Assembly (NCBI GenBank): GCA_009886125.1
Contig: VFJK01000154.1
Location: forward strand, 1-64,000
DNA: 64,000 nt
Reading direction: 5' to 3'
Source: Geobacter sp.
GTDB taxonomy: Bacteria; Desulfobacterota; Desulfuromonadia; Geobacterales; DSM-12255
Shown here: piece by piece, positions 32,969 through 62,200 of the stretch
Layout of the letters: every line of letters begins with the position of its first letter
Numbering within the stretch: position 1 is the first letter of the stretch
Made by a program: the position numbers and the translations under genes
Notes under the pieces: model-generated
What the model was told of the DNA's origin: nothing
Seen by the model: only the letters and a program-made list of their open reading frames with translations
The model's database searches: none

Positions 32969-33135
32969 TGAACCCGTGACGGCGAGAGCCGTATCGAACG
33001 GAAACAGCCGGGGCTTCCAACGATGGAGTTGCAGTATCAGATAATGATCCGTAGGGGCCAACCGCCGGGAATACACCTATTGGTGCAGAAGCGGAGGCGT
33101 TGCAGAGAGAGACGGTTCTCACCGTTACGGGTTCA
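32969..33135. repeat. 170-nt foldable element, copy B (cca-uvrD spacer)
   Basis: Second copy of the element at 1231-1400. Arms 32969-32992 and 33112-33135 pair over 24 positions with three wobble or mismatch sites. The 27-base block at 32989-33015 is identical to copy A. In the outer stem, T-A and A-T pairs of copy A become C-G pairs here, so pairing is kept while sequence changes. It ends about 30 nt before the uvrD start and would lie in the uvrD leader if transcription starts upstream. Confidence 0.7.
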
Positions 33136-33165
33136 GATTTTTGGAAGAAAAAAACAGGGATAATC

Positions 33166-35373
<2,208 letters not shown>

Positions 35374-35545: not shown

Positions 35546-37822
35546 ATGCAAAAAAATCAGAAAGAACTGAAATCCGGAAGCATTCTCGATATCAAGCGTG
35601 ATTCATCGGGAAAAATATGGAGCCACGTTCGGCAAAAGTGGCTAATTGAAACTCCAGAAGAACGGGTACGGCAGGAATATGTTTGCTCTCTGGTCAACGA
35701 ATATGAATATTCCCTCGAACAGATGCATGAGGAAATGACGCCACCCGGCGCTCGTGGCACAGCCAATGCCCGCGCTGACATCGCAATCTGGCGCACCATT
35801 GGCGAGAAGAAGAGTCAGGAAAATCCACTTATTGTCGTTGAATGCAAGGCGAATAACGTTACCATCGAACAGGCAACCTACACGCAGGGGGGAAATTATG
35901 CCAACTTCTGCAAAGCCCGTTTCTTCGTCACGCACAACCACCGCCAGACTAAATACTGGAAGGTGGACCATTCAAAGCTCGCCCCCAACTATGCCGAAAT
36001 CAAGGATCTCCCCCATGCCGGGGCTTCCAACAAGGAAATAGAGGACATTCTCAAGAGCCTGCGCACCTTCCGCGAAGACGAGTTCGCCGACCTGCTTCAT
36101 CAATGCCACAACGTTATCCGCAACCGTGAACACCTTGATCCAGCCGCCGCTTTTGACGAGATTGCCAAGATTCTGTTTGTGAAAACCTGGTCAGAACGCC
36201 GCATGCGTGAGCGGGGGGAAAGAAAGAATCTATTTACAGTGGAAATTCTCAATCAACAACTAGTAAAAGACCCGATCAACTCTCTCTTTGACCAAACCAA
36301 GGAATCTTACAAAACCGACAAAATTTTTGATCCGGGTGAGCGCATAAACCTGCGCCCTGCCACCGTTGAAGATATCGTCAAGCGCCTGCAAGCCTACAAC
36401 CTATCCGATACCAGCGAAGACGTGAAGGGGATTGCCTTTGAGCGCTTTCTTGGCCGGACGTTTCGCGGCGAGATCGGCCAGTTCTTCACTCCGCGTAGCA
36501 TCGTCGAATTCATGATTCGCATGGTAGAGCCAAAAGAAGGTGACGTCATCTGCGACCCGGCCAGCGGCTCAGGCGGCTTTCTGATCCGGGCTTTTGAAAT
36601 CATTCGCGAGCAGATCGCCGCCGCTGTTGATCGGGAGTACCAGGAGTTTTCAGCAGAGGTGGAAGGCAAAAAACTCACTGAAGTAAAAAAGGCTGAACAG
36701 TTGCGTGAAAAGTGGGATCAACTGCAAGCTCAGCTCGATCCGGTAAGCGACACTGAACGTCCGGCAAGTGAACGGCAAGCCTCACGTATCTGGCATCTGG
36801 CCAACCGCTGCATCTACGGTACTGACGCCAACGACCGCATGGCCCGCACCAGCAAGATGAACATGATCATGCACGGCGACGGCCACGGCGGCGTGCATCA
36901 CCACAACGGCTTCCTTAATGTCAACGGTATTTTCGAAGGTCGCTTCGACATCATCGTCACCAATCCCCCTTTCGGTTCCAACGTCGAGCCGAGCGATGTT
37001 ATTCTCGAAGAGCAGGTGAAGGTGCCCAGCGCAGCCCGTGAGCGCTACCTGGGTGAGTACGGCGACCCCTATAAACAAGCGCTGGAGCGGGTAGAAAGCG
37101 CTATCGGCTCTCCAATCGGCAAACTGTTTTCACTCCCTGCCAAAAATGCCAAAGGCGAAGTGACCGGCAAGATCAAGACCGAAGTCCTTTTCATTGAGCG
37201 CTGTCTTAACCTGCTTAAGCCGGGCGGTCGGCTCGGAATCGTCCTGCCCGAGGGGATCTTCAACAACCCGTCATTGGCCGCTGTGCGGGAGTTCAGCGAG
37301 GACCGCGCCTATATCCGGGCTGTAGTCAGTCTGCCGCAAGAGACATTTAACTCTTCCGGCGCCAGCGTCAAGGCATCGCTATTGTTCATGCAGAAGTTTA
37401 CGGCAGAGGAGCAGACCCGCTTCGACAGCACGAAAGCAGAGGCTTTCCGGGAGACACGCGACAAGTACGCGGAGGAGATTAAGGCAGAAACAGTAAGGCT
37501 TGAGGCGTTGACAATAGAAACAAAACTGAAACGTAATGCTGAAGCCAGCAAGGCGGCGCAGAAGGAATTGGCTGACTTCAAGAAACGGATGGAAGAGCGG
37601 ATAAAAACCGAGTCTCGCGCCCTGCTGAAAGAGAGGTTTGCTTATCCGATCTTCCTCTACGAGGCCGAAAAAGTGGGCATCTCCGCCACCGGCGAAGAGG
37701 ATGTCAACGAGCTTTATCCGGGGAAGAACTTTCCAGCGGAACTCAGCAAGAGTTGTCTGGAGCTGTACGGAGAGTTTCGGGAAAACACGGAGGCATTTAT
37801 GCTGGCTGAGGTGGGTGCATGA
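35546..37822 (+). CDS. Nuclease-methyltransferase fusion R-M protein (HsdR-N + HsdM)
   Basis: The 758-residue protein combines a type I HsdR-like N-terminal nuclease domain with an adenine methyltransferase. A PD-(D/E)xK site is visible as Asp78 (ARADIAIW), Glu99-Cys-Lys101 (IVVECKA) and Gln114. The HsdM part has the helical N-terminal region, GQFFTPR (311-317), motif I DPASGSGGF (337-345) and motif IV NPPF (473-476), then a charged coiled coil. There is no helicase/translocase. Together with the separate specificity gene that overlaps by 4 bases, this is the BcgI-type layout in which one chain cuts and methylates. TTGACC/TATAAG lie immediately upstream with little leader, so the message may be leaderless. 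Confidence 0.85.
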   Translation: MQKNQKELKSGSILDIKRDSSGKIWSHVRQKWLIETPEERVRQEYVCSLVNEYEYSLEQMHEEMTPPGARGTANARADIAIWRTIGEKKSQENPLIVVECKANNVTIEQATYTQGGNYANFCKARFFVTHNHRQTKYWKVDHSKLAPNYAEIKDLPHAGASNKEIEDILKSLRTFREDEFADLLHQCHNVIRNREHLDPAAAFDEIAKILFVKTWSERRMRERGERKNLFTVEILNQQLVKDPINSLFDQTKESYKTDKIFDPGERINLRPATVEDIVKRLQAYNLSDTSEDVKGIAFERFLGRTFRGEIGQFFTPRSIVEFMIRMVEPKEGDVICDPASGSGGFLIRAFEIIREQIAAAVDREYQEFSAEVEGKKLTEVKKAEQLREKWDQLQAQLDPVSDTERPASERQASRIWHLANRCIYGTDANDRMARTSKMNMIMHGDGHGGVHHHNGFLNVNGIFEGRFDIIVTNPPFGSNVEPSDVILEEQVKVPSAARERYLGEYGDPYKQALERVESAIGSPIGKLFSLPAKNAKGEVTGKIKTEVLFIERCLNLLKPGGRLGIVLPEGIFNNPSLAAVREFSEDRAYIRAVVSLPQETFNSSGASVKASLLFMQKFTAEEQTRFDSTKAEAFRETRDKYAEEIKAETVRLEALTIETKLKRNAEASKAAQKELADFKKRMEERIKTESRALLKERFAYPIFLYEAEKVGISATGEEDVNELYPGKNFPAELSKSCLELYGEFRENTEAFMLAEVGA

Positions 37823-39201
37823 CAACGGCTGCAACCGCACGACCACGAGCCTTTGCAGTCTGGTTCAAAGATTTGGATCGTTGGGATACAACCTATTTTC
37901 GAGGGATCAGTTGGGCCTGGCCCAAAGAGTATTTTGTTACAATTGGTTCTGTACTCGAAGCCAAGTCTATTGCAGTAGATTCAAAGCTTCCGAATGCAGA
38001 CAAACCAATTATCGACAAAATCACTTTTGGAGGAGCCATATTCCTTACGGATACCGATGCACGTACTTTCTACAAAGGACGCCTATTTTGGGCTAATGCT
38101 GGCGATTTCATTTATAGCAAAATCAGGGTTAAACAGGGCTCCTGTGCGATCGTACCTTCTACAATCCCTGCCATTGCAGTCAGTACGGAGTATCCGGTTT
38201 ATAGGATTGCGTCAAACAAAGTATTGCCTGAATATTTTTCATTGTTGGTTCGATGTCAGCCGTTTCTGAAAATACTGGATGGCATTTCCCATGGCGGTTC
38301 AACAAAAACAAGAATTCATCCTTCGCAATTTGAGTCGATCTTAATTCCAATTCCGCCCTTGTCCATTCAACATGCAATTGTAGGCCGATGGCAGCAAGCA
38401 CAAACGGAAATTGCGGCAGCGCATACTCATTCGGACACACAGGAAAGACAGCGTAAACTCATCTTTCTTGCCGCTCTCGGTAATGCCGGGATTGCGCCAA
38501 CAGACAAGCAGCGTTGTTTCGCGCTTCCATGGTCAAAAGTTGACCGCTGGAGCATCGAATACCTACAACGAGCCTGTTTCGGCGAGGGTTCCTTCAAGTG
38601 GCGCTTTCCGTGTGAACCGTTATCAGCCCTGTGCAAAGGCCAGAGCGGCGGAACTCCTCTAACGTCGAATGCGAGACTTTGGGATGGCGCCATACCGTGG
38701 GTTTCACCAAAAGACATGAAAGTTTTCCGGATTTCAGATTCCCAAGATCACATCAGCGAAGAGGCAGTTGAATGTTCATCCGCCCCCATGATTCCGGCAA
38801 AATCTGTCTTGATTGTGGTGCGAAGTGGCATATTACAACGCTTAGTGCCGATTGCTATTAATGAAGTTTCCGTCTCAATAAATCAGGATATACGCGCCTT
38901 CACCGTGACAGATGAAAGGCTTTTGCCAGATTTTTTAGCTCACTTTCTGGAAGCCCGTTCAGACGACCTGTTAAGCTTGGTTAAATGGAGCACGACGGTG
39001 CAAAGTATCAATCGGGAAGAACTGGAAGCCTATCCAATTCCACTGCCACCAGTCAATGTTCAGCAGCGCATTGTTGAAGAAGCAGAGAAGATGCGCGCCG
39101 AGGTTACAGGGAAGCGAGATACTGCAAAGCTGCTTTCTGAGAGCATCAAGTCCGAAATCGAGGCGATGATTTTGGGGACAAAGACGGTCGATACACAGTA
39201 A
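37819..39201 (+). CDS. hsdS: Specificity subunit HsdS of the fusion R-M system
   Basis: The 460-residue protein has two target-recognition domains, each ended by the family's spacer helix. The first half ends ESILIPIPPLSIQHAIVGRW plus a helix. The second starts near WSKVDRWSIEYL and ends YPIPLPPVNVQQRIVEEAE plus a helix. Two such halves predict a bipartite DNA target. It overlaps the nuclease-methyltransferase gene by 4 bases (ATGA) and precedes the AlbA_2 gene by 20 nt, so the three are probably co-transcribed. Confidence 0.9.
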   Translation: MTTAATARPRAFAVWFKDLDRWDTTYFRGISWAWPKEYFVTIGSVLEAKSIAVDSKLPNADKPIIDKITFGGAIFLTDTDARTFYKGRLFWANAGDFIYSKIRVKQGSCAIVPSTIPAIAVSTEYPVYRIASNKVLPEYFSLLVRCQPFLKILDGISHGGSTKTRIHPSQFESILIPIPPLSIQHAIVGRWQQAQTEIAAAHTHSDTQERQRKLIFLAALGNAGIAPTDKQRCFALPWSKVDRWSIEYLQRACFGEGSFKWRFPCEPLSALCKGQSGGTPLTSNARLWDGAIPWVSPKDMKVFRISDSQDHISEEAVECSSAPMIPAKSVLIVVRSGILQRLVPIAINEVSVSINQDIRAFTVTDERLLPDFLAHFLEARSDDLLSLVKWSTTVQSINREELEAYPIPLPPVNVQQRIVEEAEKMRAEVTGKRDTAKLLSESIKSEIEAMILGTKTVDTQ

Positions 39202-39221: not shown

Positions 39222-40898
39222 ATGACCGAAAAAGAACTGCGCGAACACTTGCAACGCCAGTATCCCATTGAAAACGAGAGCTGCGAGTGGAAGGAGTTCA
39301 AGAGCCTGTCCCATGCCGTTTCAGGCGACAAGGGCAAGGACATCATTTCGTACATCTCGGCGCTTGCCAATATGGATGGTGGCGAGCTGATAATCGGTGT
39401 CATGGACAAGACTCTTGACATTGTTGGCATTGAAAATCTGCACTCCTACACTCCGGAAAACATTCGTCTACGCATCCTCAACAAATGTCCAAACCTCGAT
39501 TCGGAGGGGTTCCGTGTGGAGCAATTCATTACCTCCGATACTGCCAAGCGCGTATGGGTCTTCCATGTTTCCTGCCATAAACCACGTCTGCCGGTTTACG
39601 CCCATGACAAGGCATGGCAGCGCATCGACGACAGTTTGGTAGAACTTCGCCCCGAACGGTTGGCAAGCATTCTCGCTGAGCCGATTGAAGTGGTGGATTG
39701 GACAGCTCAGATTGTGCAGGACGCATCAATCGATGATCTCGACCCGGCTGCATTGGCTTTGGCACTGGACAAATTCAGTGAGAAAAATAAGAACTCATCG
39801 TTTGCGGACGAGATTGCCGGATGGGATACGCGAACATTCCTGGACAAGGCGAAGGTTACCATTCAGGGGAACATAACCCGCTCCGCATTGATACTGCTTG
39901 GCAAGCCCGAATCCGTGCACTTTCTTTCTCCTGCCATGACACAGATTACCTGGAAGCTTGAGGGCGAAGAGCGCGCCTATGAACATTTCGATCCTCCCTT
40001 TCTTTTAGCCACAACTGCCGTCCTGCACCGTATCCGCAACATCAAGTACAAGATATTTCCCGACAACCAGTTACTGGCTACAGAGGTCAACAAATACGAT
40101 ACGCGGGTAATCCTTGAGGCTTTGCACAACTGCATTGCACACCAGGACTACTCATTATGCTCGCGCATCGTTGTGACCGAGAAAGTTGATCGGCTGATCT
40201 TCGAGAATGCCGGCAGCTTTTTTGACGGCAAGCCGGAGGACTATTTCATCGGGGAGCGGACGCCACAGCGCTATCGTAATCACTGGCTTGCGCAAGGCAT
40301 GGTCAACCTGAACATGATTGATACGGTTGGTCACGGCATCCATACCATGATCATAACCCAGCGCCAAAGGTACTTCCCTCTCCCTGACTACAGCAAATCC
40401 GAAAAACTAAAAGTAGTGTTGGAGATATTCGGACACCTTATAGACGAAAATTATACCAAGCTATTGTTGGAGAGACAGGATTTACCACTTTCTACGGTCA
40501 TACTGCTTGACCGTACCCAGAAGCGTCAGCCAATCACTGACGATGCGGCTACGATGCTGCGCAAGGCCGGGTTAATCGAAGGCAGAAAGCCCGGTTTCTT
40601 TGTTTCGGCGAAAGTTGCCGCTGCTACCAACACCAAGACGATTTACACTCGTAACCGCGGCATTGATAAAGCTCGCCTCAAGGAATTCGTGCTTCAGCAT
40701 ATCAAGGAATTCGGCCCTACGCCTCGCACCCAGTTTGAAGAGTTGCTGTTCTCAATGCTGCCTGCGGTTCTCAGTAATGAGAAAAAAAAGAACAAGGTGA
40801 AAAATCTTCTGACGGAGATGCGCATGACAGACAAGAGCGTTCGATGCCGAACAATAAACGGGGCTTCTCTGTGGGAACTTGAAAACAATGGCGTTTAA
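39222..40898 (+). CDS. Schlafen AlbA_2 domain ATPase-like protein, copy 1
   Basis: The 558-residue protein begins with an AlbA_2/Schlafen-type domain (ESCEWKEFKS, then DIISYISALANMDGGELIIGV, about 20-130). The middle holds a GHKL-like ATP-binding region recognisable by EALHNCIAHQDY (N-box-like) and FENAGSF. The C-terminus (about 440-558) looks like winged helices. This is the COG2865 class often found beside type I restriction genes. Molecular activity is unknown; DNA binding or a regulatory or abortive role are possible. It directly follows hsdS, and a relative sits in the second R-M locus at 57047. Confidence 0.82.
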   Translation: MTEKELREHLQRQYPIENESCEWKEFKSLSHAVSGDKGKDIISYISALANMDGGELIIGVMDKTLDIVGIENLHSYTPENIRLRILNKCPNLDSEGFRVEQFITSDTAKRVWVFHVSCHKPRLPVYAHDKAWQRIDDSLVELRPERLASILAEPIEVVDWTAQIVQDASIDDLDPAALALALDKFSEKNKNSSFADEIAGWDTRTFLDKAKVTIQGNITRSALILLGKPESVHFLSPAMTQITWKLEGEERAYEHFDPPFLLATTAVLHRIRNIKYKIFPDNQLLATEVNKYDTRVILEALHNCIAHQDYSLCSRIVVTEKVDRLIFENAGSFFDGKPEDYFIGERTPQRYRNHWLAQGMVNLNMIDTVGHGIHTMIITQRQRYFPLPDYSKSEKLKVVLEIFGHLIDENYTKLLLERQDLPLSTVILLDRTQKRQPITDDAATMLRKAGLIEGRKPGFFVSAKVAAATNTKTIYTRNRGIDKARLKEFVLQHIKEFGPTPRTQFEELLFSMLPAVLSNEKKKNKVKNLLTEMRMTDKSVRCRTINGASLWELENNGV

Positions 40899-40957: not shown

Positions 40958-41208
40958 AAGTATAATCACTTTAACATGCTGAAATTATTTATGTAACTTG
41001 CTTGTAGCAGCGTTTATTTAATTCATTTATTTATTAACAAAACGCTGCATTTTCATCAGAAATCCAGACCGCACGTCTCGGCTTTCCTCCTTCACAATAT
41101 GCCCACATCTAACATATATGACTTATATATTGCATGATATTACGTATTTATGTTATATAAATATTACATACATTGTTCATCTTATCAATTGACAGAAGGG
41201 AGTATCCC

Positions 41209-42276
41209 ATGATTTTGCGCGAGGTTAGAGAGCTTGCCGGAGTGGGACAGGAATCGCTGGGCGAACAGATTGGTGTTACGCGCCAGACCATAGCTGCATG
41301 GGAGCGGGGAGACCGCGAACCTTCGATGCAGCAGGTCGTAAAACTCTGCCGGATTCTGAATGTGCCGATTGACGTTATGCTTGGCGCCGACAACGCAGCG
41401 GAACCGGTGCTGTTGTTCCGTGCCGATGCAGCAGAGACGCTTTCACCAGGCTTTAGAAAAGTTTTGACCCGCAAGGCGTGTGACTATGCGGAAATAGAGA
41501 AGCTGGCCGGTGCCCTGCCGAATCTGCCGGGCTCTCGGCCACTAACCACATTTGACCCTCACCTGGTCGAACAGGTGGCGCATGAAGTGCGGGACTGGCT
41601 GGGAGTTGAGGACGCCCCGCTCGGTGATGTCCTGTCGCTTTTGGAAGGCAAGGGGCTTAAGATTTTTCTGCAAAAACTGCCTGACTCCGTTTCCGGGTTT
41701 TCGGCCTATACAGATGAAGTCGGCGGAGCAATCTTTGTCAATGAGGGGCATCACACTGAAAGACAATATTTCACTGCGCTCCATGAGCTCTCCCACCTCA
41801 TCTTTCATCGCAAGGAGTACCAATCTCCGGCAGGAACGGCTGCGAAAGTGGGCAAGTCGGACCCGCGGGAACAGGCGGCAAACTTTCTTGCCGGGGCAGT
41901 GCTATTGCCACGGAATATGGTCGAAGCTGAGCTGCACCCCTACCGTAACCGCTGGCTGCCGTTTTCTCTGTTGGGAGACATCAAGCGGCGCTACTCGGTA
42001 AGCATGAGAACCGTGCTGGTCCGTGCCGGTCAACTCGGCATTATCTCATCCAGACAATCTTTCCAGCAGATCGCCAAGATCAATGAAAAATACGGCAAGG
42101 AAGATGAGCCGGTGGACCTGAAACACCCCGAATCACTCCGCCGCTTGAATCGATTGGTCTATCAGGCGCTGATTGAGGAAAAGATTACAACTTCCAAGGC
42201 CGCCGAGGTCCTGGGGGTGCCGGTTCACGAGGTCAGGGACGAACTTGCAAAATGGCTTTCCGAGGAACTGGTTTGA
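41209..42276 (+). CDS. XRE regulator fused to ImmA/IrrE metallopeptidase
   Basis: Residues 1-60 form an XRE helix-turn-helix (EQIGVTRQTIAAWERGDREPS). Residues about 120-260 form an ImmA/IrrE (COG2856) peptidase-like domain with the zinc motif HELSHLIFH and GGAIFVNEG before it. The C-terminal part has a further helical region (TSKAAEVLGVPVHEVRDEL). Start at 41209 follows GAAGGGAG. XRE-ImmA proteins often act as antitoxin-like or stress-relief regulators that are degraded or cut repressors. The next gene, a PIN protein, overlaps its stop codon, so the pair is a likely toxin-antitoxin unit. Confidence 0.88.
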   Translation: MILREVRELAGVGQESLGEQIGVTRQTIAAWERGDREPSMQQVVKLCRILNVPIDVMLGADNAAEPVLLFRADAAETLSPGFRKVLTRKACDYAEIEKLAGALPNLPGSRPLTTFDPHLVEQVAHEVRDWLGVEDAPLGDVLSLLEGKGLKIFLQKLPDSVSGFSAYTDEVGGAIFVNEGHHTERQYFTALHELSHLIFHRKEYQSPAGTAAKVGKSDPREQAANFLAGAVLLPRNMVEAELHPYRNRWLPFSLLGDIKRRYSVSMRTVLVRAGQLGIISSRQSFQQIAKINEKYGKEDEPVDLKHPESLRRLNRLVYQALIEEKITTSKAAEVLGVPVHEVRDELAKWLSEELV

Positions 42277-42755
42277 TCCTCCTGGCAGATACCAGCATAT
42301 TGATTGATCTAGAGCACGTTGGCGGGGTCGCAGTATTACCACGCATCGCACCCTGCGAAATACTGGACGTGGTGCTGGCTGAGTGCGAACACGCCAGTCA
42401 GCCCGAGCTGGTGCAGAACATAAAACAATCCGGAATTACCGTGGTCGAGACCTCAATTGATCTCGCCAGCAGAGCATCTAACCTGCGGCGGGGCGGAGTC
42501 AGCACCATTGACATGATGACCTTGTGCCATGCAAAAGAGCGCGGGCATGCAGTCCTCGCAGGTGATCGTCCATTGCGTGAGAGGTGCAAGGAAGAAGGAG
42601 TTGAGTTCCGTGGGAGTATCTGGATAGTTGAAGAGGCTCACCGACTTCAGATTCTTAAGGCCGCAGAACTTTTACGGTGGCTGATGGTCTGGCCGACGGT
42701 TGGCAGAAGGCTTCCTACGGATGAGCTGGAAAGATTGCGACAACTCCTCTCCTAA
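42273..42755 (+). CDS. PIN-like protein partnered with XRE-ImmA
   Basis: The 160-residue product begins LILLADTSILIDLEHV with the first PIN aspartate. It has acidic positions in DVVLAECEHA, TIDMMTLCHAKE and LAGDRPLRERC, consistent with a PIN-type RNase site. TTG at 42273 is chosen: GAGGAA lies 5 nt upstream and the codon overlaps the TGA of the upstream gene. ATG at 42252 is the alternative. Translational coupling to the XRE-ImmA gene suggests a toxin under its control; this is inference. Confidence 0.8.
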   Translation: MILLADTSILIDLEHVGGVAVLPRIAPCEILDVVLAECEHASQPELVQNIKQSGITVVETSIDLASRASNLRRGGVSTIDMMTLCHAKERGHAVLAGDRPLRERCKEEGVEFRGSIWIVEEAHRLQILKAAELLRWLMVWPTVGRRLPTDELERLRQLLS

Positions 42756-42869
42756 GTACATCTAGATTATTGCTTTTGAGCCCACCACCCCCTCCTGCCT
42801 TGCCTTTTTCTCCGGTTCGTGCTAGAAAATACCCTTCTTTCCGGACTTTACATCAGATCAGGAGTTGTT

Positions 42870-43157
42870 ATGAGGATCACCAGAAAAGAGGTGGAGCATG
42901 TCGCCACCCTTGCCCGTCTGAAGCTTGATGAGGAAGAGATTTCGACCTTCACCGGACAGATGGATGCAATTCTTTCTTATGTCGATACACTTTCGCAGTT
43001 GAACACAGACGGGATCATTCCTACTTCGCATGCTGTCCCTATGGAGAACGCTTTCCGTCCTGACGAGACCCGCCCGTCTCTCGGAACGGAAAATGCGCTG
43101 GCAAATGCACCGGAGAGAACAGATGATTTTTTCAAAGTGCCTAAAGTAATAGAATAA
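42870..43157 (+). CDS. gatC: Asp/Glu-tRNA(Asn/Gln) amidotransferase subunit C
   Basis: GatC is the small stabilising subunit of the GatCAB complex that amidates mischarged Glu-tRNA(Gln) or Asp-tRNA(Asn). The 95 residues show the family pattern: VEHVATLARLKLDEEE, QMDAILSYVDTLSQLNTDGI, and the C-terminal APERTDDFFKVPKVIE. ATG at 42870 follows AGGAG. It is followed by gatA across an 81-nt spacer filled with hairpins. Its presence implies that one or both tRNAs are charged by the indirect pathway. Confidence 0.95.
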   Translation: MRITRKEVEHVATLARLKLDEEEISTFTGQMDAILSYVDTLSQLNTDGIIPTSHAVPMENAFRPDETRPSLGTENALANAPERTDDFFKVPKVIE

Positions 43158-53427: not shown

Positions 53428-55854
53428 ATGGCCATAAAGAAATCCGAACTCTATTCATCCCTCTGGCAATCCTGCGACGAGCTGCGCGGCGGGATGGATG
53501 CCAGTCAATATAAAGACTACGTGCTGGTGCTGCTGTTTGTGAAATACGTCAGCGACAAATACGCCGGGGTGCCGTATGCGCCGATCACAATTCCTGATGG
53601 TGCCAGTTTCACGGATATGATCGCACTCAAGGGTAAGCCCGACATCGGCGACCAGATCAATAAGAAAATCATCGGACCGCTGGCAAATGCCAACAGGCTG
53701 TCGGACATGCCGGATTTCAATGATGCGAGTAAGCTGGGCAGCGGTTCGGAAATTGTGGAGCGGCTCACCAATCTCATCTCCATCTTTGAAAACAAGGCGC
53801 TCGACTTCAGTAAGAACCGTGCCGAGGGCGATGATATCCTTGGCGATGCCTATGAATACCTGATGCGCCACTTTGCCACCGAGAGTGGCAAGAGCAAGGG
53901 GCAGTTCTATACCCCCGCCGAAGTCAGCCGCATTATGGCGCAGATCATCGGCATTCGTAATGCACAGACGACGAACAAAACCTCTGTTTATGACCCGACG
54001 GGCGGTTCGGGATCGCTGCTGCTGAAAGTGGGCGACGAAGCTCAAACCAAGGTCACGCTCTACGGGCAGGAGAAGGACGCGGCTACCTCCGGCTTGGCAC
54101 GCATGAATATGATCCTGCACGATTACCCCACGGCCCTGATCAAGCAGGGCAATACGCTATCCAATCCGCTTTTTTTCAACGAGGACGGATCACTCAAGAC
54201 CTTCGATTATGTTGTTGCGAATCCTCCATTCAGCGACAAACGCTGGAGTACCGGCGTGGATGTGCTCAATGACCCCTACGATCGCTTCAAGCCTTTCGGC
54301 ACGCCTCCTGCCAAGCAGGGAGATTACGCCTATCTGCTGCACATCGTCCGCTCGCTCAAGAGCACCGGCAAAGGCGCCTGCATTCTACCGCACGGCGTAC
54401 TGTTTCGCGGCAATGCCGAGGCCGACATCCGCAAGAATCTCATCCGCAAGGGGTACATCAAGGGGATCATCGGCCTGCCCCCTAACTTGTTCTACGGCAC
54501 CGGCATTCCTGCCTGCATCATCGTTATCGACAAGGAAAGCGCCCACACCCGCAAGGGGATCTTCATGGTGGACGCCAGCAGCGGCTACCTCAAGGACGGC
54601 AACAAGAACCGCCTGCGCGACTGCGACCTCCACCAGATCGTCGATGTCTTCAACAAACGGCTGGAAATTCCCAAATACTCCCGCATGGTGGGTGTGGAGG
54701 AGATCGAGAAGAACGACTTCAACCTCAACATTCCGCGCTACATCGACAGCCAGCAGGCCGAGGATATTCAGGACATCGAAGGTCATCTGAAGGGGGGCAT
54801 TCCCAGTGCCGATGTGGATGCCTTGCAACCGTATTGGGACGTCTGTCCGCAACTGCGGCAGACCCTGTTCTCCCCTCGCCCTCAGGGAGAGGGGCCGGGG
54901 GTGAGGGTCGGCTACCTTGATCTGGCCGTATCCAAGCAAGCCATCAAGCCTACCATCTACGAGCATCCCGAGTTTGTTACCTTCATCGGCAGCATGAATG
55001 CCCTGTTTGCCGACTGGCAGCAGCGCAGTACCCAAACACTCAAGAGCCTGCAAGCCGGTTGTCACCCCAAGAACGTCATCGCCCTGCTTGCGGAAGAGCT
55101 GCTCGCGCACTACACCGGCAAGCCGCTGATCCATCAGTACGACGTCTATCAGCATCTGATGGATTACTGGTCCACGGTCATGCAGGACGATTGCTACCTG
55201 ATCGCCGCCGACGGCTGGCAGGCCGAGACCTACCGGGTTATCGAGAAGGACAAAAAGGGCAAGGAGAAGGATAAAGGCTGGACGTGCGACCTGGTGCCCA
55301 AACCGCTGATTGTTGATAAATACTTCGCCGCAGAGCAAACGGCCATCCGTGAGCAGGAGGCAATACTGGAGAGTGTGGCCGCCCGGATGACGGAGATGGA
55401 AGAGGAGCACGGCGGCGAGGAAGGTGCCTTTTCGGAACTGGACAAGGTGAACAAGGCCAATGTCACCGCACGGCTGAAAGAGATCAAAGGCGACAAAGAT
55501 GCCAAGGAAGAGGCCGATGTCCTGAATGCCTGGCTGAAACTGAGCACGCAGGAAGCCGATCTCAAGAAAGCCCTGAAAGAAGCCGAGGCAGCACTGGATG
55601 CGCTGGCTTATACGAAATATCCCAAGCTCACTGAGGCAGAAATCAAGACGCTGGTTGTTGAAGACAAGTGGCTGGCAACTATCTCTGCCGCCATACATGG
55701 CGAGATGGATCGTATCAGTCAGGTACTGACCCAGCGGGTGAAAGAGCTCGCAGAGCGTTATGAGACGCCACTGCCACAAGCATCAAAACAAGTTGCCGTG
55801 TTGGAGCAGACTGTGAACGCCCACTTGGCTCGGATGGGGTTCTCATGGAACTGA
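53428..55854 (+). CDS. hsdM: Type I restriction-modification methyltransferase HsdM
   Basis: Methylates adenine as part of the M2S complex. The 808-residue protein has an HsdM N-terminal helical domain (ELYSSLWQSCDELRGGMDAS, YVLVLLFVKYVSDKY), GQFYTPAEVSRIMAQI, SAM motif I YDPTGGSGSLLL (188-199) and motif IV NPPF (265-268). It is longer than the usual 500-550 residues because of a charged C-terminal region (coiled coil, about 630-790). A short palindromic repeat is inserted in frame at about residues 482-494. It overlaps hsdS by 10 bases. Confidence 0.94.
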   Translation: MAIKKSELYSSLWQSCDELRGGMDASQYKDYVLVLLFVKYVSDKYAGVPYAPITIPDGASFTDMIALKGKPDIGDQINKKIIGPLANANRLSDMPDFNDASKLGSGSEIVERLTNLISIFENKALDFSKNRAEGDDILGDAYEYLMRHFATESGKSKGQFYTPAEVSRIMAQIIGIRNAQTTNKTSVYDPTGGSGSLLLKVGDEAQTKVTLYGQEKDAATSGLARMNMILHDYPTALIKQGNTLSNPLFFNEDGSLKTFDYVVANPPFSDKRWSTGVDVLNDPYDRFKPFGTPPAKQGDYAYLLHIVRSLKSTGKGACILPHGVLFRGNAEADIRKNLIRKGYIKGIIGLPPNLFYGTGIPACIIVIDKESAHTRKGIFMVDASSGYLKDGNKNRLRDCDLHQIVDVFNKRLEIPKYSRMVGVEEIEKNDFNLNIPRYIDSQQAEDIQDIEGHLKGGIPSADVDALQPYWDVCPQLRQTLFSPRPQGEGPGVRVGYLDLAVSKQAIKPTIYEHPEFVTFIGSMNALFADWQQRSTQTLKSLQAGCHPKNVIALLAEELLAHYTGKPLIHQYDVYQHLMDYWSTVMQDDCYLIAADGWQAETYRVIEKDKKGKEKDKGWTCDLVPKPLIVDKYFAAEQTAIREQEAILESVAARMTEMEEEHGGEEGAFSELDKVNKANVTARLKEIKGDKDAKEEADVLNAWLKLSTQEADLKKALKEAEAALDALAYTKYPKLTEAEIKTLVVEDKWLATISAAIHGEMDRISQVLTQRVKELAERYETPLPQASKQVAVLEQTVNAHLARMGFSWN
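54871..54908 (+). repeat. REP-like palindrome inserted in frame inside hsdM
   Basis: The stretch CCCTCGCCCTCAGGGAGAGG and its continuation GGCCGGGGGTGAGGG form the dispersed palindrome commonly seen between genes of many proteobacteria. Here it lies inside the reading frame and encodes SPRPQGEGPGVRVG, unlike the surrounding sequence, without disturbing the frame. Confidence 0.75.
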
Positions 55855-57050
55855 GGCCGGGTTACAAGCAAACCGAAGTCGGTTTGATACCAGATGATTG
55901 GAAGGTTCGACGGATTAAAGACCTTATCACCATCAAGAGTGGATTTGCATTTAGCAGCACGTATTATGCGGACAAGGGACCGATCCTGCTGACACCTGGC
56001 AATTTCAAATTGGCAGGAGGGCTTTATTTTAATGATCGCAACACTAAACGCTATTTAGGTCCATACACGAATTCGATGGTTTTTGAGTATGGCGACCTAT
56101 TGATCGTGATGACCGATTTAACGCCAGATTGCAATCTTCTCGGTAAGCCGGCTTTTGTAAAACTTGACGAAAAAATACTCCATAACCAGCGGATCGGCAA
56201 AATTATTCCGAGTAGTAATCTTCTCTCAATGGACTTCCTATATTGGTTCTTTTCATCGGACGCTCATGCAGCAAGAATGAAGGAGACGGCTACTGGCTCA
56301 ACAGTCCGACACACGTCAAACGGAAGCATCTACGGTAGTCTGATCCCCCTCCCACCCACCAAAGCCGAACAAGAAGCTATCGCCAACGCATTGAGCGATA
56401 CAGATGCCCTCATCGAATCCTTGGAACAACTCATCACCAAAAAACGCCACATCAAACAAGGGGCCATGCAGGAATTGCTCACTGGCAAAAAGCGCCTGCC
56501 GGGGTTCAGTGGGGAGTGGATGATCGATTACATTGAAAATCTCGCCAATATCTCTACTGGTAGCAAAAACACTCAAGATCGCGTTGATGATGGTGAATTT
56601 CCGTTCTTTGTGCGGTCTCAAACTATCGAGCGTATCAATAGTTATTCATTTGATGGGGAAGCAGTTCTTACCGCAGGCGATGGCGTTGGAACTGGAAAGG
56701 TATTCCATTACATCAATGGTAAATTCGATGCACATCAACGTGTTTACCGTATCAGCGACTTCAGTGAACGTATAGATGGATATTTCTTTTACCTCTATTT
56801 CAGTAACCACTTTTATAACAGGATCATGCAGATGACAGCCAAATCATCAGTAGATTCAGTTCGGCGTGAGATGATCGCAATGATGCCCATACCGCTCCCG
56901 CCCACCAAATCCGAACAAACCGCCATAGCCACCATCCTTTCCGACATGGACGCCGAGATCACCAACCTCGAAACCAAGCTCGCCAAAACCCGGCAGCTCA
57001 AGCAAGGCATGATGCGGGAACTCCTGACCGGGAGGATACGATTGAAATGA
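55845..57050 (+). CDS. hsdS: Type I restriction specificity subunit HsdS
   Basis: The 401-residue protein has two target-recognition domains. Each half ends in the repeated motif PLPPTKAEQEAIANALSDTD / PLPPTKSEQTAIATILSDMD, followed by a helix and the tail KQGAMQELLTGKKRL / KQGMMRELLTGRIRL. This gives a bipartite target. It overlaps hsdM by 10 bases and the AlbA_2 gene by 4. A copy of the tail motif recurs after the AlbA_2 gene at 58917. Confidence 0.93.
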   Translation: MELRPGYKQTEVGLIPDDWKVRRIKDLITIKSGFAFSSTYYADKGPILLTPGNFKLAGGLYFNDRNTKRYLGPYTNSMVFEYGDLLIVMTDLTPDCNLLGKPAFVKLDEKILHNQRIGKIIPSSNLLSMDFLYWFFSSDAHAARMKETATGSTVRHTSNGSIYGSLIPLPPTKAEQEAIANALSDTDALIESLEQLITKKRHIKQGAMQELLTGKKRLPGFSGEWMIDYIENLANISTGSKNTQDRVDDGEFPFFVRSQTIERINSYSFDGEAVLTAGDGVGTGKVFHYINGKFDAHQRVYRISDFSERIDGYFFYLYFSNHFYNRIMQMTAKSSVDSVRREMIAMMPIPLPPTKSEQTAIATILSDMDAEITNLETKLAKTRQLKQGMMRELLTGRIRLK

Positions 57051-58918
57051 CCATAGATCAATTACTCGATACTCTGCAGCTTGGTGAAGACCAGGACATC
57101 GAATTCAAGGCAGCTGATGGCGGTTTGCCACGCTCTCTCTGGGACACGGTTTCTGCCTTTGCCAATACTGATGGCGGTTATATTGTGCTTGGGGTCGCAG
57201 AGCGAGACGGAGGATTTATCATTGAAGGAGTGCGTAAGCCCGAAACCCTCCTCAAGACGTTTTGGGATGGCCACAATAATCCCCAAAAGCTGAATCAGCC
57301 TGTGTGTAGTGCCTCTGATGTGGCTGTCATACCGGTGGACAAGCATCGGTTGGTGTGCATCCATGTACCCAGAGTCAGTCGTCAGCAGCGCCCGGTGTAT
57401 ATCAACGGCAATCCTCTTTTGGGTACCTACAAACGCAATTTTGAGGGTGATTACCGCTGCACAGAAGCTGAAGTACGGCAAATGCTGCGCGACGCGGGGG
57501 ATGAACCCCTGGATGGCCAGATTATGGAGGGGTTTGACCTGAGTGATCTGGATACGGAATCACTTGCCGCCTATCGCAACCGGTTTGCCTCCCGTGACCC
57601 GGACCACCCGTTTCTGGCCTTAAACGATCTGGACTTTCTTGAACGCTTGGGCGGGTTGCGTCGTGACCGGCGTAGCGGTGCAGAAGGTATTACCCTGGCC
57701 GGCATCCTGATGTTTGGTAATGAACGCTGCCTTCTTGATGCGCTTCCTCATTTTCACCTTGATTATCAGGAACAGCTGTCAAGTAACCCGGAAGAACGGT
57801 GGACCTATCGCTTGACCCTGGACGGCAAGTGGGTACCGAACCTGTTCAATTTTTACTATCGCGTCTATCCACGACTTGTAGATGGAGTTGATGTGCCTTT
57901 CAAGCTGGACAGGGCTTCCATACGGCTGGAAGAGACCCATGTGCATGAGGCGCTGCGGGAGGCGCTTGTAAACACCCTGATCCATTCCGATCATCAATCA
58001 TCCCGCCCAATCACTATCATCAAACGAAAAGACACCTTTGTCTTTGCAAATCCGGGACGTCTGCGTATTCCCAAAGAGCAGTTGTACTCCGGTGGCGTAA
58101 GCGACCCACGCAACCCGAATCTGCAGAAGATGTTCCAGATGCTGGGTCTGGGTGAGAAAGCAGGTTCCGGTTTTCAGAAGATTTTGCGTGCATGGCGAGA
58201 ACAGCATTGGATGATACCTCTGGTGGCAGAGAACCCAACTCTTGAAATGACGAGAGTTTTCCTGCCAATAGCCAGCATGATACCGGATGATGTGGAACGG
58301 GAACTTCGCTTGGTGGTTGGCGATGCTTACAGAACGCTGGATGAATTGGGACGGGTGATCTTGATGCTGGCGCACCGTTTCGGTGAAGTCGGGAACGAAG
58401 ACATCCAGCACTATCGAAAGGAGCATTCCAGAGATATTGGTACCCGTTTGGGCCAGATGGCAACATCAGGATGGCTTGAAAAAGCCGGGCATGGCCGTGG
58501 TACCCGCTATCGTTGGCCAGCGACCCGCAACTTGGGACTGTTTGATACTATTCCAAATGTTCTTGTAGGCTCCGAACATTTGCAGCCGAGCTCCGAACAT
58601 TTGAAGCTTAGCTCCGAACATTTGAAGCTTAGCTCCGAACATTTGAGCTCCGAACAAGAAGACAAATTGTTACAAATAGCAGTGGATGTGCGTGGGAAAG
58701 GCAAGGTTCCCAAGGTGTTGATGGAAGCAACCATTCTTTCTCTTTGCGAAGGGGACTGGCTTTCGCTCCGAACATTGGCTCGGGTGCTAAACCGGGAGCC
58801 CGACTCTTTGCGAAACCATTACATCACTGATATGTTACGAGATGGCCGTTTGCAGGCACGGGTGCCTGGAAAATCTAACCATCCAAATCAGGCATACCGT
58901 ACAACACCAAGTCGTTAA
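57047..58918 (+). CDS. Schlafen AlbA_2 domain ATPase-like protein, copy 2
   Basis: The 623-residue product begins with an AlbA_2 domain (EDQDIEFKAADGGLP, WDTVSAFANTDGGYIVLGV). A GHKL-like region with REALVNTLIHSDHQ and FANPGRLRIP follows near 300-345, then winged-helix-like segments. A serine-rich tandem repeat (units of SSEHLKL) joins two C-terminal domains. It belongs to the same class as the gene at 39222 but the two are not close. The start overlaps hsdS by 4 bases. Role unknown; its position inside an R-M operon suggests regulation or backup defence. Confidence 0.82.
   Translation: MTIDQLLDTLQLGEDQDIEFKAADGGLPRSLWDTVSAFANTDGGYIVLGVAERDGGFIIEGVRKPETLLKTFWDGHNNPQKLNQPVCSASDVAVIPVDKHRLVCIHVPRVSRQQRPVYINGNPLLGTYKRNFEGDYRCTEAEVRQMLRDAGDEPLDGQIMEGFDLSDLDTESLAAYRNRFASRDPDHPFLALNDLDFLERLGGLRRDRRSGAEGITLAGILMFGNERCLLDALPHFHLDYQEQLSSNPEERWTYRLTLDGKWVPNLFNFYYRVYPRLVDGVDVPFKLDRASIRLEETHVHEALREALVNTLIHSDHQSSRPITIIKRKDTFVFANPGRLRIPKEQLYSGGVSDPRNPNLQKMFQMLGLGEKAGSGFQKILRAWREQHWMIPLVAENPTLEMTRVFLPIASMIPDDVERELRLVVGDAYRTLDELGRVILMLAHRFGEVGNEDIQHYRKEHSRDIGTRLGQMATSGWLEKAGHGRGTRYRWPATRNLGLFDTIPNVLVGSEHLQPSSEHLKLSSEHLKLSSEHLSSEQEDKLLQIAVDVRGKGKVPKVLMEATILSLCEGDWLSLRTLARVLNREPDSLRNHYITDMLRDGRLQARVPGKSNHPNQAYRTTPSR
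58569..58658 (+). repeat. 21-bp tandem repeats in the AlbA_2 gene
   Basis: GCTCCGAACATT starts at 58569, 58590, 58611 and 58632, exactly 21 bp apart, with a partial unit at 58647 and another GCTCCGAACATT at 58765. Units encode SSEHLKL. The period is in frame, so repeat number can change without loss of the gene. Confidence 0.85.
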
Positions 58919-58967
58919 ACAAGGCATGATGCACAACCTGCTCACCGGAAGGATTCGACTGGTATGA
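58917..58967 (+). pseudogene. hsdS C-terminal tail remnant
   Basis: The frame KQGMMHNLLTGRIRLV followed by TGA matches the end of the hsdS gene at 55845 (KQGMMRELLTGRIRL) at 13 of 15 positions, but has no gene before it other than the AlbA_2 ORF in another frame. It is best read as the 3' end of a second or former hsdS displaced by arrival of the AlbA_2 gene. Confidence 0.75.
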
Positions 58968-58978
58968 TGTGTTTGCAG

Positions 58979-59013
58979 AAAACTAAAATAAGCAGCTACG
59001 CTATTTTAGTTTT
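58979..59013. other. AT-rich hairpin upstream of hsdR
   Basis: AAAACTAAAATA pairs perfectly with TATTTTAGTTTT around an 11-nt loop containing GC pairs. It may terminate the hsdM-hsdS-AlbA_2 transcript or serve as an operator. CTAAAATAAG recurs just downstream (59033). The remaining spacer to 59216 shows no gene. Confidence 0.5.
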
Positions 59014-59215
59014 TCAGCAAAATCTAAAATAAGGGGATGGTTAAAGCGAACATGTTGCCGCTCAATTTATAAGAAGTTATTCGGTGTTATACAAATAAGG
59101 CCCTATAACTATGAATAATTCAGTATAAATACCCACTGGAGATATTTACTGTGCCTCTATTTGATCAATTCATGCTGCGTGCTATACCTGATTTTGATTC
59201 CAAGGGGAAAAGCTC

Positions 59216-62200
59216 ATGACCACCATCGGCCAGCCAGAACGCGCCACTCAGAACCGCATCATCGCCCTATTCCGGGACGAACTCGGCTATCGCTACCTCG
59301 GCGACAAGACAGATCTCCCGAACAACAGCAACATCGAAGAAGCACTCCTCACCGCTTATCTTACCAAAAACGACTACACTCGCGCACAGATCAGCAATGC
59401 AATCTACAAACTTCGTATTGAGTCGGACAACCCGAACCGCAGCCTCTACGACAACAACAAGGAGGTTTACAAACTGTTACGCTACGGCGTACCGGTGAAG
59501 ATCGAAGCGGGCAAGGTTACTGAGACGGTCCATCTGATTAACTGGAATGAGGCGAAGAACAACGATTTTGCAATTGCCGAGGAAGTCACACTGCACGGCA
59601 ACTTCGACCGTCGTCCCGACCTGGTACTCTATGTCAACGGCATTGCCGTGGGGGTGCTGGAGCTGAAGAACAGCCGCATCTCTATTGGCGACGGAATCCG
59701 CCAAAACATCTCCAACCAGCAGCCGCAGTTCAACGAGTGGTTTTTCAGCACGGTGCAATTCATCTTTGCCGGTAACGATTCCGAGGGGCTGCAATACGGA
59801 ACGATCAAGACGGAAGAGAAGTATTTCCTGAAATGGAAGGAAGACGAGGCGGACAACAGCCGCTTCAAGCTGGATAAATACCTGCTCAAGATGTGCAACA
59901 AGGAGCGGCTGATAGAACTGATGCACGACTTCGTGCTGTTCGATGGCGGCATGAAGAAGCTGCCGCGCGTCCACCAGTATTTCGGCATCAAGGCAGCGCA
60001 GGCCCATGTCCACCGCCGTGAGGGCGGCATTATCTGGCACACCCAGGGGAGCGGCAAGAGCATCGTCATGGTGCTGCTTGCCAAGTGGATCCTGGAAAAC
60101 AAACCCAATGCCCGCGTGGTGATCGTCACCGACCGCGACGAACTGGACAAGCAGATCGAAGGCGTCTTCACCGCTGCCAGTCACCCTATGACCCGCGCCA
60201 GCAGTGGCCGCGACCTGATGACCCAACTTGGACAGGCCACACCGCGCCTGCTCTGCTCGCTGGTGCACAAGTTCGGCAGGAAGGGCGTGGATGATTTCGA
60301 GCAGTTCATCAAGGAGCTGGAAGCTCAACCCTGCCATACGGTGGGCGAGATTTTCGTATTCGTGGACGAATGTCATCGCACCCAGAGCGGCAAACTGCAC
60401 CGCACCATGAAGGCGCTGATGCCCAATGCCGTGTTCATCGGCTTTACCGGCACGCCGCTGCTCAAGCAGGACAAACAGACCAGCCTGGAGGTTTTCGGCG
60501 GCTACATCCATACCTACAAGTTCAGCGAAGGGGTGGAGGATGGGGTTGTGCTCGACCTGATATATGAGGCACGGGACATCGACCAGCGGCTCGGCTCGGA
60601 AGACAGGATCGACACCTGGTTCGACGTAAAGACCAAGGGGCTGAACGATTGGCAGAAGGCGGCCCTGCGCGAACAGTGGGGCACCATGCAGAACGTACTC
60701 AGTTCACGGTCCCGTATGGATCGAGTGGTGGAAGACATCATCTTCGACTTTAGCGTGAAGCCGCGCCTCTCAAACGAACGTGGCAATGCCATCCTGGTGG
60801 CCTCCAGCATCTTTGAAGCGTGCAAGTATTTCGAGCTGTTCCAAAAGACGCCGTTCAAAGGCAAGTGTGCGGTAGTAACCTCCTACAATCCGCTGGCGAA
60901 AGACATTACCCTGGAGGATACCGGCGCGAATACTGAGACGGACAAGGAATCCATCTATACCACTTACACGACGTTGCTGAAGAACACAGGCATGCCCAAT
61001 ACTGAGGCGTACGAGGACCAGGCCAAGAAACTGTTCAAGGAGCAACCGGTCAATATGAAACTGCTGGTGGTGGTGGATAAACTGCTGACCGGCTTTGATG
61101 CGCCCAGCTGCACCTATCTCTATATCGACAAGAAAATGCAGGACCACGGGCTGTTTCAGGCCATCTGCCGCGTTAACCGTCTGGATGGGGAGGATAAAGA
61201 CTTCGGCTATGTCGTGGACTACAAGGACCTCTTCAAGAAGGTGGAGAACGCCATTGCGGTGTATACCTCCGAGCTGGATCACAGCGCCGGTGGTGTCGAT
61301 CCCGAGATTCTGCTGCAGGACCGCCTGACCAACGGTAGGGAACGGCTGGACAATGCGTTGGAAGCAATCGCCATGCTTTGTGAACCGGTAGCACCGCCCA
61401 AAAGAGATTTGGACTATATCCATTATTTCTGCGGCAACACGGAGATCCCGTCAGACCTGAAAGAACGTGAGACACAACGTGCTGCGCTCTACAAAGCGGC
61501 GGTTGCACTGGTACGGGCATACGCCAATATAGCGGACGAACTGGGCAAGGCAGGGTATAGCGAGGCCGACATCAAGCGTATCGATCAGCAACTCAAGAAT
61601 TATCTTAATCTCCGCGAGATCATCCGCAACGCTGCCGGCGAAAACCTGGACCTGAAAGCCTATGAAGCCGACATGCGGCACCTCATCGATACCTATATCG
61701 AAGCCGATGCGCCAAGGAAAATTTCGCCCTTCGACGATATACCGCTGCTGGACCTGATCGTGAAGACCGGCATTGCTGCTGCGATCAACAGCCTTCCGTC
61801 TGGGCTCAAGGGTAACAAGACCGCAGTTGCCGAGACCATCGAGAACAACGTCCGCAGCAAGATCATCAAGGAACACCTGAATGACCCTGCTTATTACGAC
61901 AAGATGTCGGCGATTCTGGACGAGATCATCAAATTCCGCAAAGAGCAGGCGGAAGCCTACGAGGAGTACCTGAAGAAGATCGCCGAACTGGCGAAGAGGG
62001 TGGAAGCGGGACAAGCGGAAGATACGCCTGAGCAGCTGAATACACCAGGGCTGCGTGCCCTCTACAATAATCTCAGGCCTAAAGGAGCTGCCGACCCTTC
62101 ACTTGCCTATGCGGGTGCTGCGCCAGACGCAATGCTCGACCTTGCCATCAGGATCGACGAAACGGTCAAGCACATCCGATCTGACGGCTGGCGCGGCGTT

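What the first reader, a model, noticed from the sequence alone, without database searches (positions are those of the whole stretch)
35546..39201. BcgI-like restriction system: nuclease fused to methyltransferase with separate HsdS
An HsdR-type PD-(D/E)xK domain (D78, E99, K101, Q114) is joined to a full HsdM, with no translocase, and a two-domain specificity subunit overlaps by 4 bases. In BcgI-type (type IIB) enzymes this arrangement excises a short fragment around a bipartite site. The nuclease domain here resembles the type I HsdR N-terminus, so it may have arisen by fission of HsdR.
Basis: partly seen in the sequence, partly recalled or inferred. Interest (0 to 1): 0.62.

Follow-up and report, generated by a model that had tools for sequence, protein, structure and literature searches.

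The report
Two-gene type IIB-like restriction-modification system
Two neighbouring genes encode what looks like a self-contained restriction enzyme, one protein that both cuts and methylates DNA plus one that reads the target site, of a widespread but mostly mislabelled relative of the known enzyme BsaXI.

Summary
Window 35546-37822 encodes a 758-aa nuclease-methyltransferase (RM). It overlaps by 4 bases a 460-aa two-TRD specificity subunit (37819-39201). There is no translocase in either gene. The RM protein's best solved match is the type IIB enzyme RM.BsaXI. The four REase residues whose alanine mutants abolish BsaXI cleavage (E73, D90, E105, K107) align with E63, D78, E99 and K101 here; D78, E99 and K101 are identical in all 79 of 81 aligned rows that cover them. 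In 80 relatives from about 18 phyla, S follows RM directly in 72, and no HsdR was detected in any. The window's own hsdR, 20 kb away, belongs to a separate complete type I operon. Best reading: a stand-alone type IIB-like R-M system, a new member of a known kind. Origin by HsdR fission is undecided: the nuclease fold is as close to BsaXI and BpuSI as to HsdR. Two features are mildly new: a roughly 80-residue two-helix hairpin sits where BsaXI has its 'knob', with no 'paddle', and PADLOC's best model for the family calls it a type I methyltransferase. Cleavage and target site are untested.

The parts
35546..37822 (+). RM gene: fused PD-(D/E)xK nuclease and gamma-class N6-adenine methyltransferase, 758 aa (end includes stop)
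35654..36013 (+). HSDR_N_2 nuclease domain (residues 37-156)
   Evidence: Pfam E 3.6e-22; 30 of 30 family members scanned match HSDR_N_2; model pLDDT 87.9; best structural match BsaXI Z 11.3
35732..35734 (+). codon E63, aligns with BsaXI E73
   Evidence: BsaXI mutagenesis in PMC11997821
35777..35779 (+). codon D78, aligns with BsaXI D90
   Evidence: 79 of 79 covering rows identical
35840..35848 (+). codons E99-C100-K101; E99 and K101 align with BsaXI E105 and K107
   Evidence: 79 of 79 covering rows identical at E99 and K101
36074..36445 (+). helical connector (about residues 177-300), with H188/N189 aligned to BsaXI H221/N222, which hold the flipped methylated adenine
   Evidence: BsaXI contacts read
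36446..37396 (+). methyltransferase domain (about residues 301-617) with DPASGSGGF (337-345) and NPPF (473-476)
   Evidence: Pfam N6_Mtase; folds of HsdM proteins
37397..37642 (+). long two-helix hairpin (helices 620-661 and 665-697) between the last two MTase strands, at the place of BsaXI's knob
   Evidence: AlphaFold2 model; alignment to BsaXI; insert 35-123 residues, median 82, in 73 rows
37819..39201 (+). HsdS-type specificity subunit, 460 aa, two target recognition domains with conserved PLPP..Q motifs after each
   Evidence: starts inside the last codons of the RM gene (37819-37822)

Best explanation
A self-contained, ATP-independent restriction-modification system of the type IIB (BcgI/BsaXI) kind. 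Two RM subunits assemble on one S subunit. The two TRDs of S read the two halves of a bipartite DNA site. The methyltransferase domain of each RM flips out and N6-methylates one adenine in its half-site, which marks host DNA. At fully unmethylated sites the N-terminal PD-(D/E)xK domains cut both strands at a fixed distance on each side, probably after two nuclease domains pair, and release a short fragment; hemimethylated sites are spared. Shown here: gene order, domains, intact and invariant catalytic motifs, homology and fold match to BsaXI along the whole chain, absence of a linked translocase, conservation of the two-gene unit. Inferred from BsaXI and BcgI: stoichiometry, bipartite m6A site, double-sided fixed-distance cutting, SAM/Mg and no ATP.
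For: RM.BsaXI is the top solved relative by sequence (E 3e-27 single; 1.4e-41 with the family profile) and holds the top three rows by Foldseek (E 9e-23 to 3e-22). Among the 50 rows its entries align over model residues 10-746 (Z about 22), while the type I HsdM entries start at residue 171 or later. BsaXI residues E73, D90, E105 and K107, each needed for cleavage (PMC11997821 section 25), align with E63, D78, E99 and K101, the last three identical in 79 of 79 covering rows. S lies within 300 bp downstream in 72 of 80 related loci, within 3 kb in 2, and is fused as one TRD in 1; 3 end at a contig edge and 2 lack it. No HsdR among 3029 ORFs of those 80 loci with six HsdR queries at E 1e-5; each of the six queries is found by at least two of the others. 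RM identity to the window is 61% (median, n=80) against 28% for S (n=73), as expected if specificity diversifies while the catalytic part is kept. The unit occurs in about 18 phyla and in 10 of 297 genomes of the own phylum, own genome included; 9 of the 10 are full-length.
Against: No biochemical data. The nuclease stretch alone matches BsaXI only weakly by sequence (i-Evalue 0.47; E 0.015 with the domain profile), so that part rests on colinearity, the fold and the motif. BsaXI also needs its paddle (D816, E823), which this family lacks. Of BsaXI's four residues around the methylated adenine, W225 and R350 are not conserved here (R192, G303). One relative (L086) has lost the nuclease core, and one distant genome has a nuclease-S fusion without the MTase. 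MAD2 of the multi-gene MADS system is also a relative. Ascertainment: the 80 loci are the best of 409 relatives, and one of the six search peptides overlaps E63; none overlaps D78, E99, K101 or Q114.
Confidence: 0.8

Rival explanations
1. It cuts at a fixed distance, but on one side only or as a nickase, i.e. type IIG-like rather than type IIB.
For: The nuclease fold is also close to the one-sided type IIG enzyme BpuSI (Z 10.6), and the geometry of this family was never measured. The paddle that BsaXI needs for cleavage is absent.
Against: A two-TRD S with two RM subunits places a nuclease domain on each side; the two-subunit RM+S enzymes listed in PMC3874165 Table 4 all cut on both sides (passages).
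Confidence: 0.1
2. A methylation unit that works with an HsdR supplied in trans (type I-like), the fused nuclease being accessory or vestigial.
For: The genome has at least six HsdR-type translocase genes (domains), one in the same window. PADLOC's best model for the family is named type I MTase.
Against: The window's HsdR has its own HsdM and HsdS. 0 of 80 related loci carry a detectable HsdR. Nuclease residues are as invariant as the MTase motifs, which a vestigial domain would not be.
Confidence: 0.05
3. A relative of the MAD2/MAD5 part of the multi-gene MADS defence system, acting only with further genes.
For: NCBIfam MAD2 model hits all 28 of 28 members scanned; the window protein scores 296 bits, best stretch over residues 25-370.
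Against: 296 bits is far under the curated cut-off of 720, and S scores 36 against 400. None of the three genes downstream matches a mad model in PADLOC (the HTH-IrrE gene had 26 hits, of which 25 are shown); other loci carry no shared third gene by the searches made here.
Confidence: 0.03

Closest known systems
BsaXI (type IIB; PDB 8w0p, 8w2p, 8w2q)
   Same: N-terminal PD-(D/E)xK domain, helical connector, N6-adenine MTase in one chain; separate two-TRD S; an insert between the last two MTase strands; four essential REase residues conserved
   Different: RM shorter (758 against 916 aa); a simple two-helix hairpin instead of the knob; no paddle; nuclease carries a QxxxY motif; structural alignment only 24-26% identical
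BcgI, HpyUM032XIII and other RM+S enzymes (PMC3874165, PMC4450513: passages read)
   Same: Gene organisation: RM fusion plus S. HpyUM032XIII is described as a BcgI-like RM with two half-S genes; relative L100 (Helicobacter valdiviensis) also has RM and two half-S genes
Type I HsdR N-terminal nuclease (HSDR_N_2/HSDR_N; 3h1t, EcoR124I 2w00)
   Same: PD-(D/E)xK fold; a Q-x-x-x-Y motif is visible in two HsdRs of the own genome (read by eye; the motif name is recalled)
   Different: No SWI2/SNF2 translocase here; fused to the MTase instead
MAD2/MAD5 of MADS
   Same: Homologous MTase with matching N-terminal part
   Different: Below curated cut-offs; no other MADS genes recognised at the locus
Engineered HsdR-nuclease/HsdM fusion of Bower et al. 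2018 (PMC6158711: passages read; author name recalled)
   Same: Same domain order
   Different: The engineered fusion methylated but did not cut; this is a natural, conserved fusion

Membership tests
Type IIB (BcgI/BsaXI-like, RM+S form) | One chain with N-terminal PD-(D/E)xK nuclease and gamma-class N6-adenine MTase | tested here: met
Type IIB (BcgI/BsaXI-like, RM+S form) | Separate S subunit with two TRDs | tested here: met
   two Methylase_S stretches; half-to-half match E 1e-6; a conserved PLPP motif after each TRD
Type IIB (BcgI/BsaXI-like, RM+S form) | No ATP-dependent translocase subunit in the system | tested here: met
Type IIB (BcgI/BsaXI-like, RM+S form) | Catalytic REase residues equivalent to those proven in BsaXI | tested here: met
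Type IIB (BcgI/BsaXI-like, RM+S form) | Bipartite recognition site methylated on both strands | not testable with these tools
   needs a methylome
Type IIB (BcgI/BsaXI-like, RM+S form) | Double-strand cuts at fixed distance on both sides of the site | not testable with these tools
   needs a cleavage assay
Classical type I R-M | Linked HsdR with translocase | tested here: not met
   HsdR at 59216-62305 belongs to another complete operon; 0 of 80 relatives
MADS | MAD2 and MAD5 above NCBIfam curated cut-offs | tested here: not met
   296.5 of 720 bits and 35.6 of 400 bits

The most novel reading that the evidence does not exclude
This family is a distinct and widespread branch of type IIB enzymes, largely catalogued as type I methyltransferases. 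It is a natural, working fusion of an HsdR-class nuclease to HsdM of the kind that failed to cut when engineered. Its two-helix hairpin, at the site of BsaXI's knob, takes over the docking or nuclease-pairing role, so that the BsaXI paddle is a lineage-specific add-on and not a second active site of type IIB enzymes in general.
Probability: 0.4. Interest if true: 0.5.

Novelty: new member of a known kind. Interest (0 to 1): 0.3.

Why it matters
Type IIB enzymes cut out short fragments around their site, and only 28 are listed as identified, 16 with sequence (PMC11997821 section 29). A two-gene family found across about 18 phyla with diverse S subunits would be a source of new specificities. 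It also bears on an open question in that paper: how such enzymes make two precise double-strand breaks and whether the paddle is a second active site. Here is a large set of relatives with the four REase residues and no paddle. It further offers natural junctions for the HsdR-nuclease/HsdM fusion that the authors of PMC6158711 could not make cut.

Tried and rejected
HsdR fission as a proven origin: not decided. The HSDR_N_2 match, the QxxxY motif and a weak profile match to one own HsdR (12.6 bits) favour HsdR kinship; fold scores put BsaXI and BpuSI first by a margin of about one Z unit. A tree of about 120 residues at under 20% identity was judged unresolvable and not built.

Paddle: I first thought the coiled stretch 620-697 was BsaXI's paddle. 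The alignment shows that it lies between the last two strands, the knob's place; nothing paddle-like follows. So the claim was dropped.

SLFN_AlbA_2 gene 39222-40898 as a third component: by BLAST with both window copies it was seen in 1 of 80 related loci (L030), so rejected as a core part. A defence hotspot between uvrD and gatC: rejected; a relative has what reads by eye as a peptide transporter cluster there.

The start codon overlapping the RM stop in 52 of 80 loci is not informative, as most TGA stops give it by chance. A link to a methylation-tested Helicobacter enzyme could not be made with named sequence. PDB search with the nuclease domain of the window protein alone found no relative. 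The paper searches for MADS gave only mentions; the MADS paper itself was not read. Papers read in part only: PMC11997821 outline with abstract, sections 4, 18, 24, 25, 29, 31 and passages; PMC3874165, PMC4450513, PMC6211672, PMC6158711, PMC11842806 passages; others in listings only.

Full report
Observation. Pfam finds HSDR_N_2 at residues 37-156 and N6_Mtase in the first protein, Methylase_S (two stretches) in the second, and no helicase domain. The genes lie between uvrD (33100-35373) and gatC (the ORF listed at 42819-43157; both names are my reading of the sequence) with three more genes: SLFN_AlbA_2/HATPase_c_4 (39222-40898), HTH-IrrE-like (41173-42276) and PIN (42252-42755). In four of seven stretches taken from related genomes uvrD and gatC are adjacent (aligned ends 76-171 bp apart); one has about 8 kb of other genes there, and two are uninformative because uvrD is not in the stretch. 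So the block is probably an insertion.

Family. A scan of genome contigs gave 409 relatives among 451 pattern matches; the best 80 were kept. In these, S follows RM within 300 bp in 72, within 3 kb in 2 (L100, L101), is fused to RM as a single TRD in 1 (L067), is beyond a contig end in 3, and is missing in 2 (L087, L096), both with an RM frame that departs from the others near its end. RM is 61% identical to the window (median of 80), S 28% (median of 73). A tree of 75 of the 81 rows (six partial or broken ones left out) mixes 18 phylum labels: 35 changes against a minimum of 17 and a shuffled mean of 51.5. This fits horizontal spread on top of some lineage clustering, with the caution that most records are metagenome bins. 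In the own phylum 10 of 297 genomes have a match at E 1e-60, own genome included, 9 of them full-length.

No translocase partner. Six HsdR-type proteins of the own genome (domains confirmed) were used as queries against 3029 ORFs of the 80 loci: none at E 1e-5, the best being 3.9e-5 for an ORF over 4 kb from the RM gene of L038. Of the 80 loci, 65 have at least 3 kb downstream and 45 at least 5 kb on both sides. As control, each of the six queries is found by at least two of the others. The window does hold an hsdR, at 59216-62305, but with its own hsdM (53428-55854) and hsdS (55845-57050).

Nuclease. In an alignment of the window protein with the 80 relatives, D78, E99, K101 and Q114 are identical in all 79 rows that cover them, and E63 in 78 of 79; L086 and L097 lack the stretch. 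L097 starts at a contig edge. L086 has sequence upstream but only a scrap of the domain, and a short S, so it looks decayed. The family profile finds RM.BsaXI first in the PDB (E 1.4e-41). The printed alignment, although weak over the nuclease part alone, sets BsaXI E73, D90, E105 and K107 against E63, D78, E99 and K101. These are the four REase positions whose alanine mutants were inactive (PMC11997821 section 25). BsaXI H221 and N222, which hold the flipped methylated adenine, align with H188 and N189; W225 and R350 do not have the same residue here.

Structure. The AlphaFold2 model of the whole protein has mean pLDDT 86.6 and pTM 0.84. Foldseek ranks three BsaXI chains first. VIA-align puts BsaXI at Z about 22 over residues 10-746; the bare methyltransferase lmo1582 ranks one Z unit higher over residues 175-746, that is without the nuclease. 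The BsaXI rmsd is large (13 to 22 A), as expected if the nuclease domain sits differently, so the full-length match is one of domain order and not of one rigid shape. The nuclease domain modelled alone (pLDDT 87.9) matches BsaXI (Z 11.3, 146 residues, 3.3 A), BpuSI (10.6, 131), a Vibrio HsdR fragment (9.9, 123), DrdV (7.9) and EcoR124I HsdR (6.9). BsaXI, BpuSI and the Vibrio HsdR are therefore near ties.

A difference from BsaXI. Residues 618-699 form two long antiparallel helices between the strands 610-617 and 703-706. The insert is 35 to 123 residues long in 73 rows, median 82. [quoted passage not shown] Here the hairpin takes the knob's place and nothing paddle-like follows. In the window's own type I HsdM the corresponding loop looks short (my reading of the sequence). 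BsaXI's paddle residues D816 and E823 thus have no counterpart. The BsaXI authors themselves doubt that the paddle is a second active site (section 31).

Naming. PADLOC's model PDLC03018, labelled type I methyltransferase, covers the window protein almost end to end (755 bits); it matches 28 of 28 members scanned and has the best E-value of all models, while MTase_II and mad2 models also match all 28, more weakly. The NCBIfam MAD2 model also hits all 28, but the window protein is far under its cut-off. So the family is in a public library, but not as a nuclease. Six searches of the paper library turned up no paper on this family; most of their hits were read only as listings, so this is weak evidence.

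Mechanism. Most likely (RM)2S binds a bipartite site, methylates one adenine per half, and cuts unmethylated sites on both sides at a fixed distance without ATP. The parts and the homology are shown; the activities are inferred from BsaXI and BcgI. I put 0.8 on this, with one-sided cutting as the main rival (0.1).

Verdict. A well-supported but largely ordinary find: a new member of the type IIB kind. It gains some interest from being widespread, labelled as something else, and lacking the paddle.

Noticed in passing
L131:4706-6640 (G122:C41): A 644-aa ORF joins the nuclease and connector of this family (window residues 23-235, 57% identical) in frame to two S-type TRDs, with the MTase missing. 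Could be a real nuclease-specificity fusion, as an evolutionary model in PMC6158711 proposes, or a deletion or misassembly in a genome with 8% contamination.
   Followed up: partly
L067:9992-12886: RM fused to a single TRD (964 aa) in a Caulobacteraceae bin, followed by a gene with a GNHR-like motif (read by eye); perhaps a half-site dimer form of the same enzyme.
   Followed up: partly
L100:9971-15070: Helicobacter valdiviensis: RM, a Fic-like gene (read by eye), two half-length S genes and a gene with a GNHR motif in a row.
   Followed up: no
53428-62305: Complete classical type I operon hsdM, hsdS, SLFN_AlbA_2, hsdR about 14 kb downstream of the reported system.
   Followed up: yes
39222-40898 and 57047-58918: Both R-M loci of the window have an SLFN_AlbA_2 plus HATPase_c_4 gene directly after hsdS, although this neighbour is rare in relatives of the RM (1 of 80).
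   Followed up: partly
41173-42755: HTH-IrrE-like gene (PADLOC RmrA, E 6.8e-41) overlapping a PIN-domain gene by 25 bases, perhaps a toxin-antitoxin-like pair.
   Followed up: no
own genome, contigs C80, C83, C104, C140, C142, C154: At least six HsdR-type translocase genes in a 3.6-Mb genome, five of them with an HsdM on the same contig within about 6 kb.
   Followed up: partly
G319:C5:17277-19013 (genome of L098): A second 767-aa RM-like frame whose MTase part matches the family but whose N-terminal part does not; possibly another type IIB class with a different nuclease.
   Followed up: no
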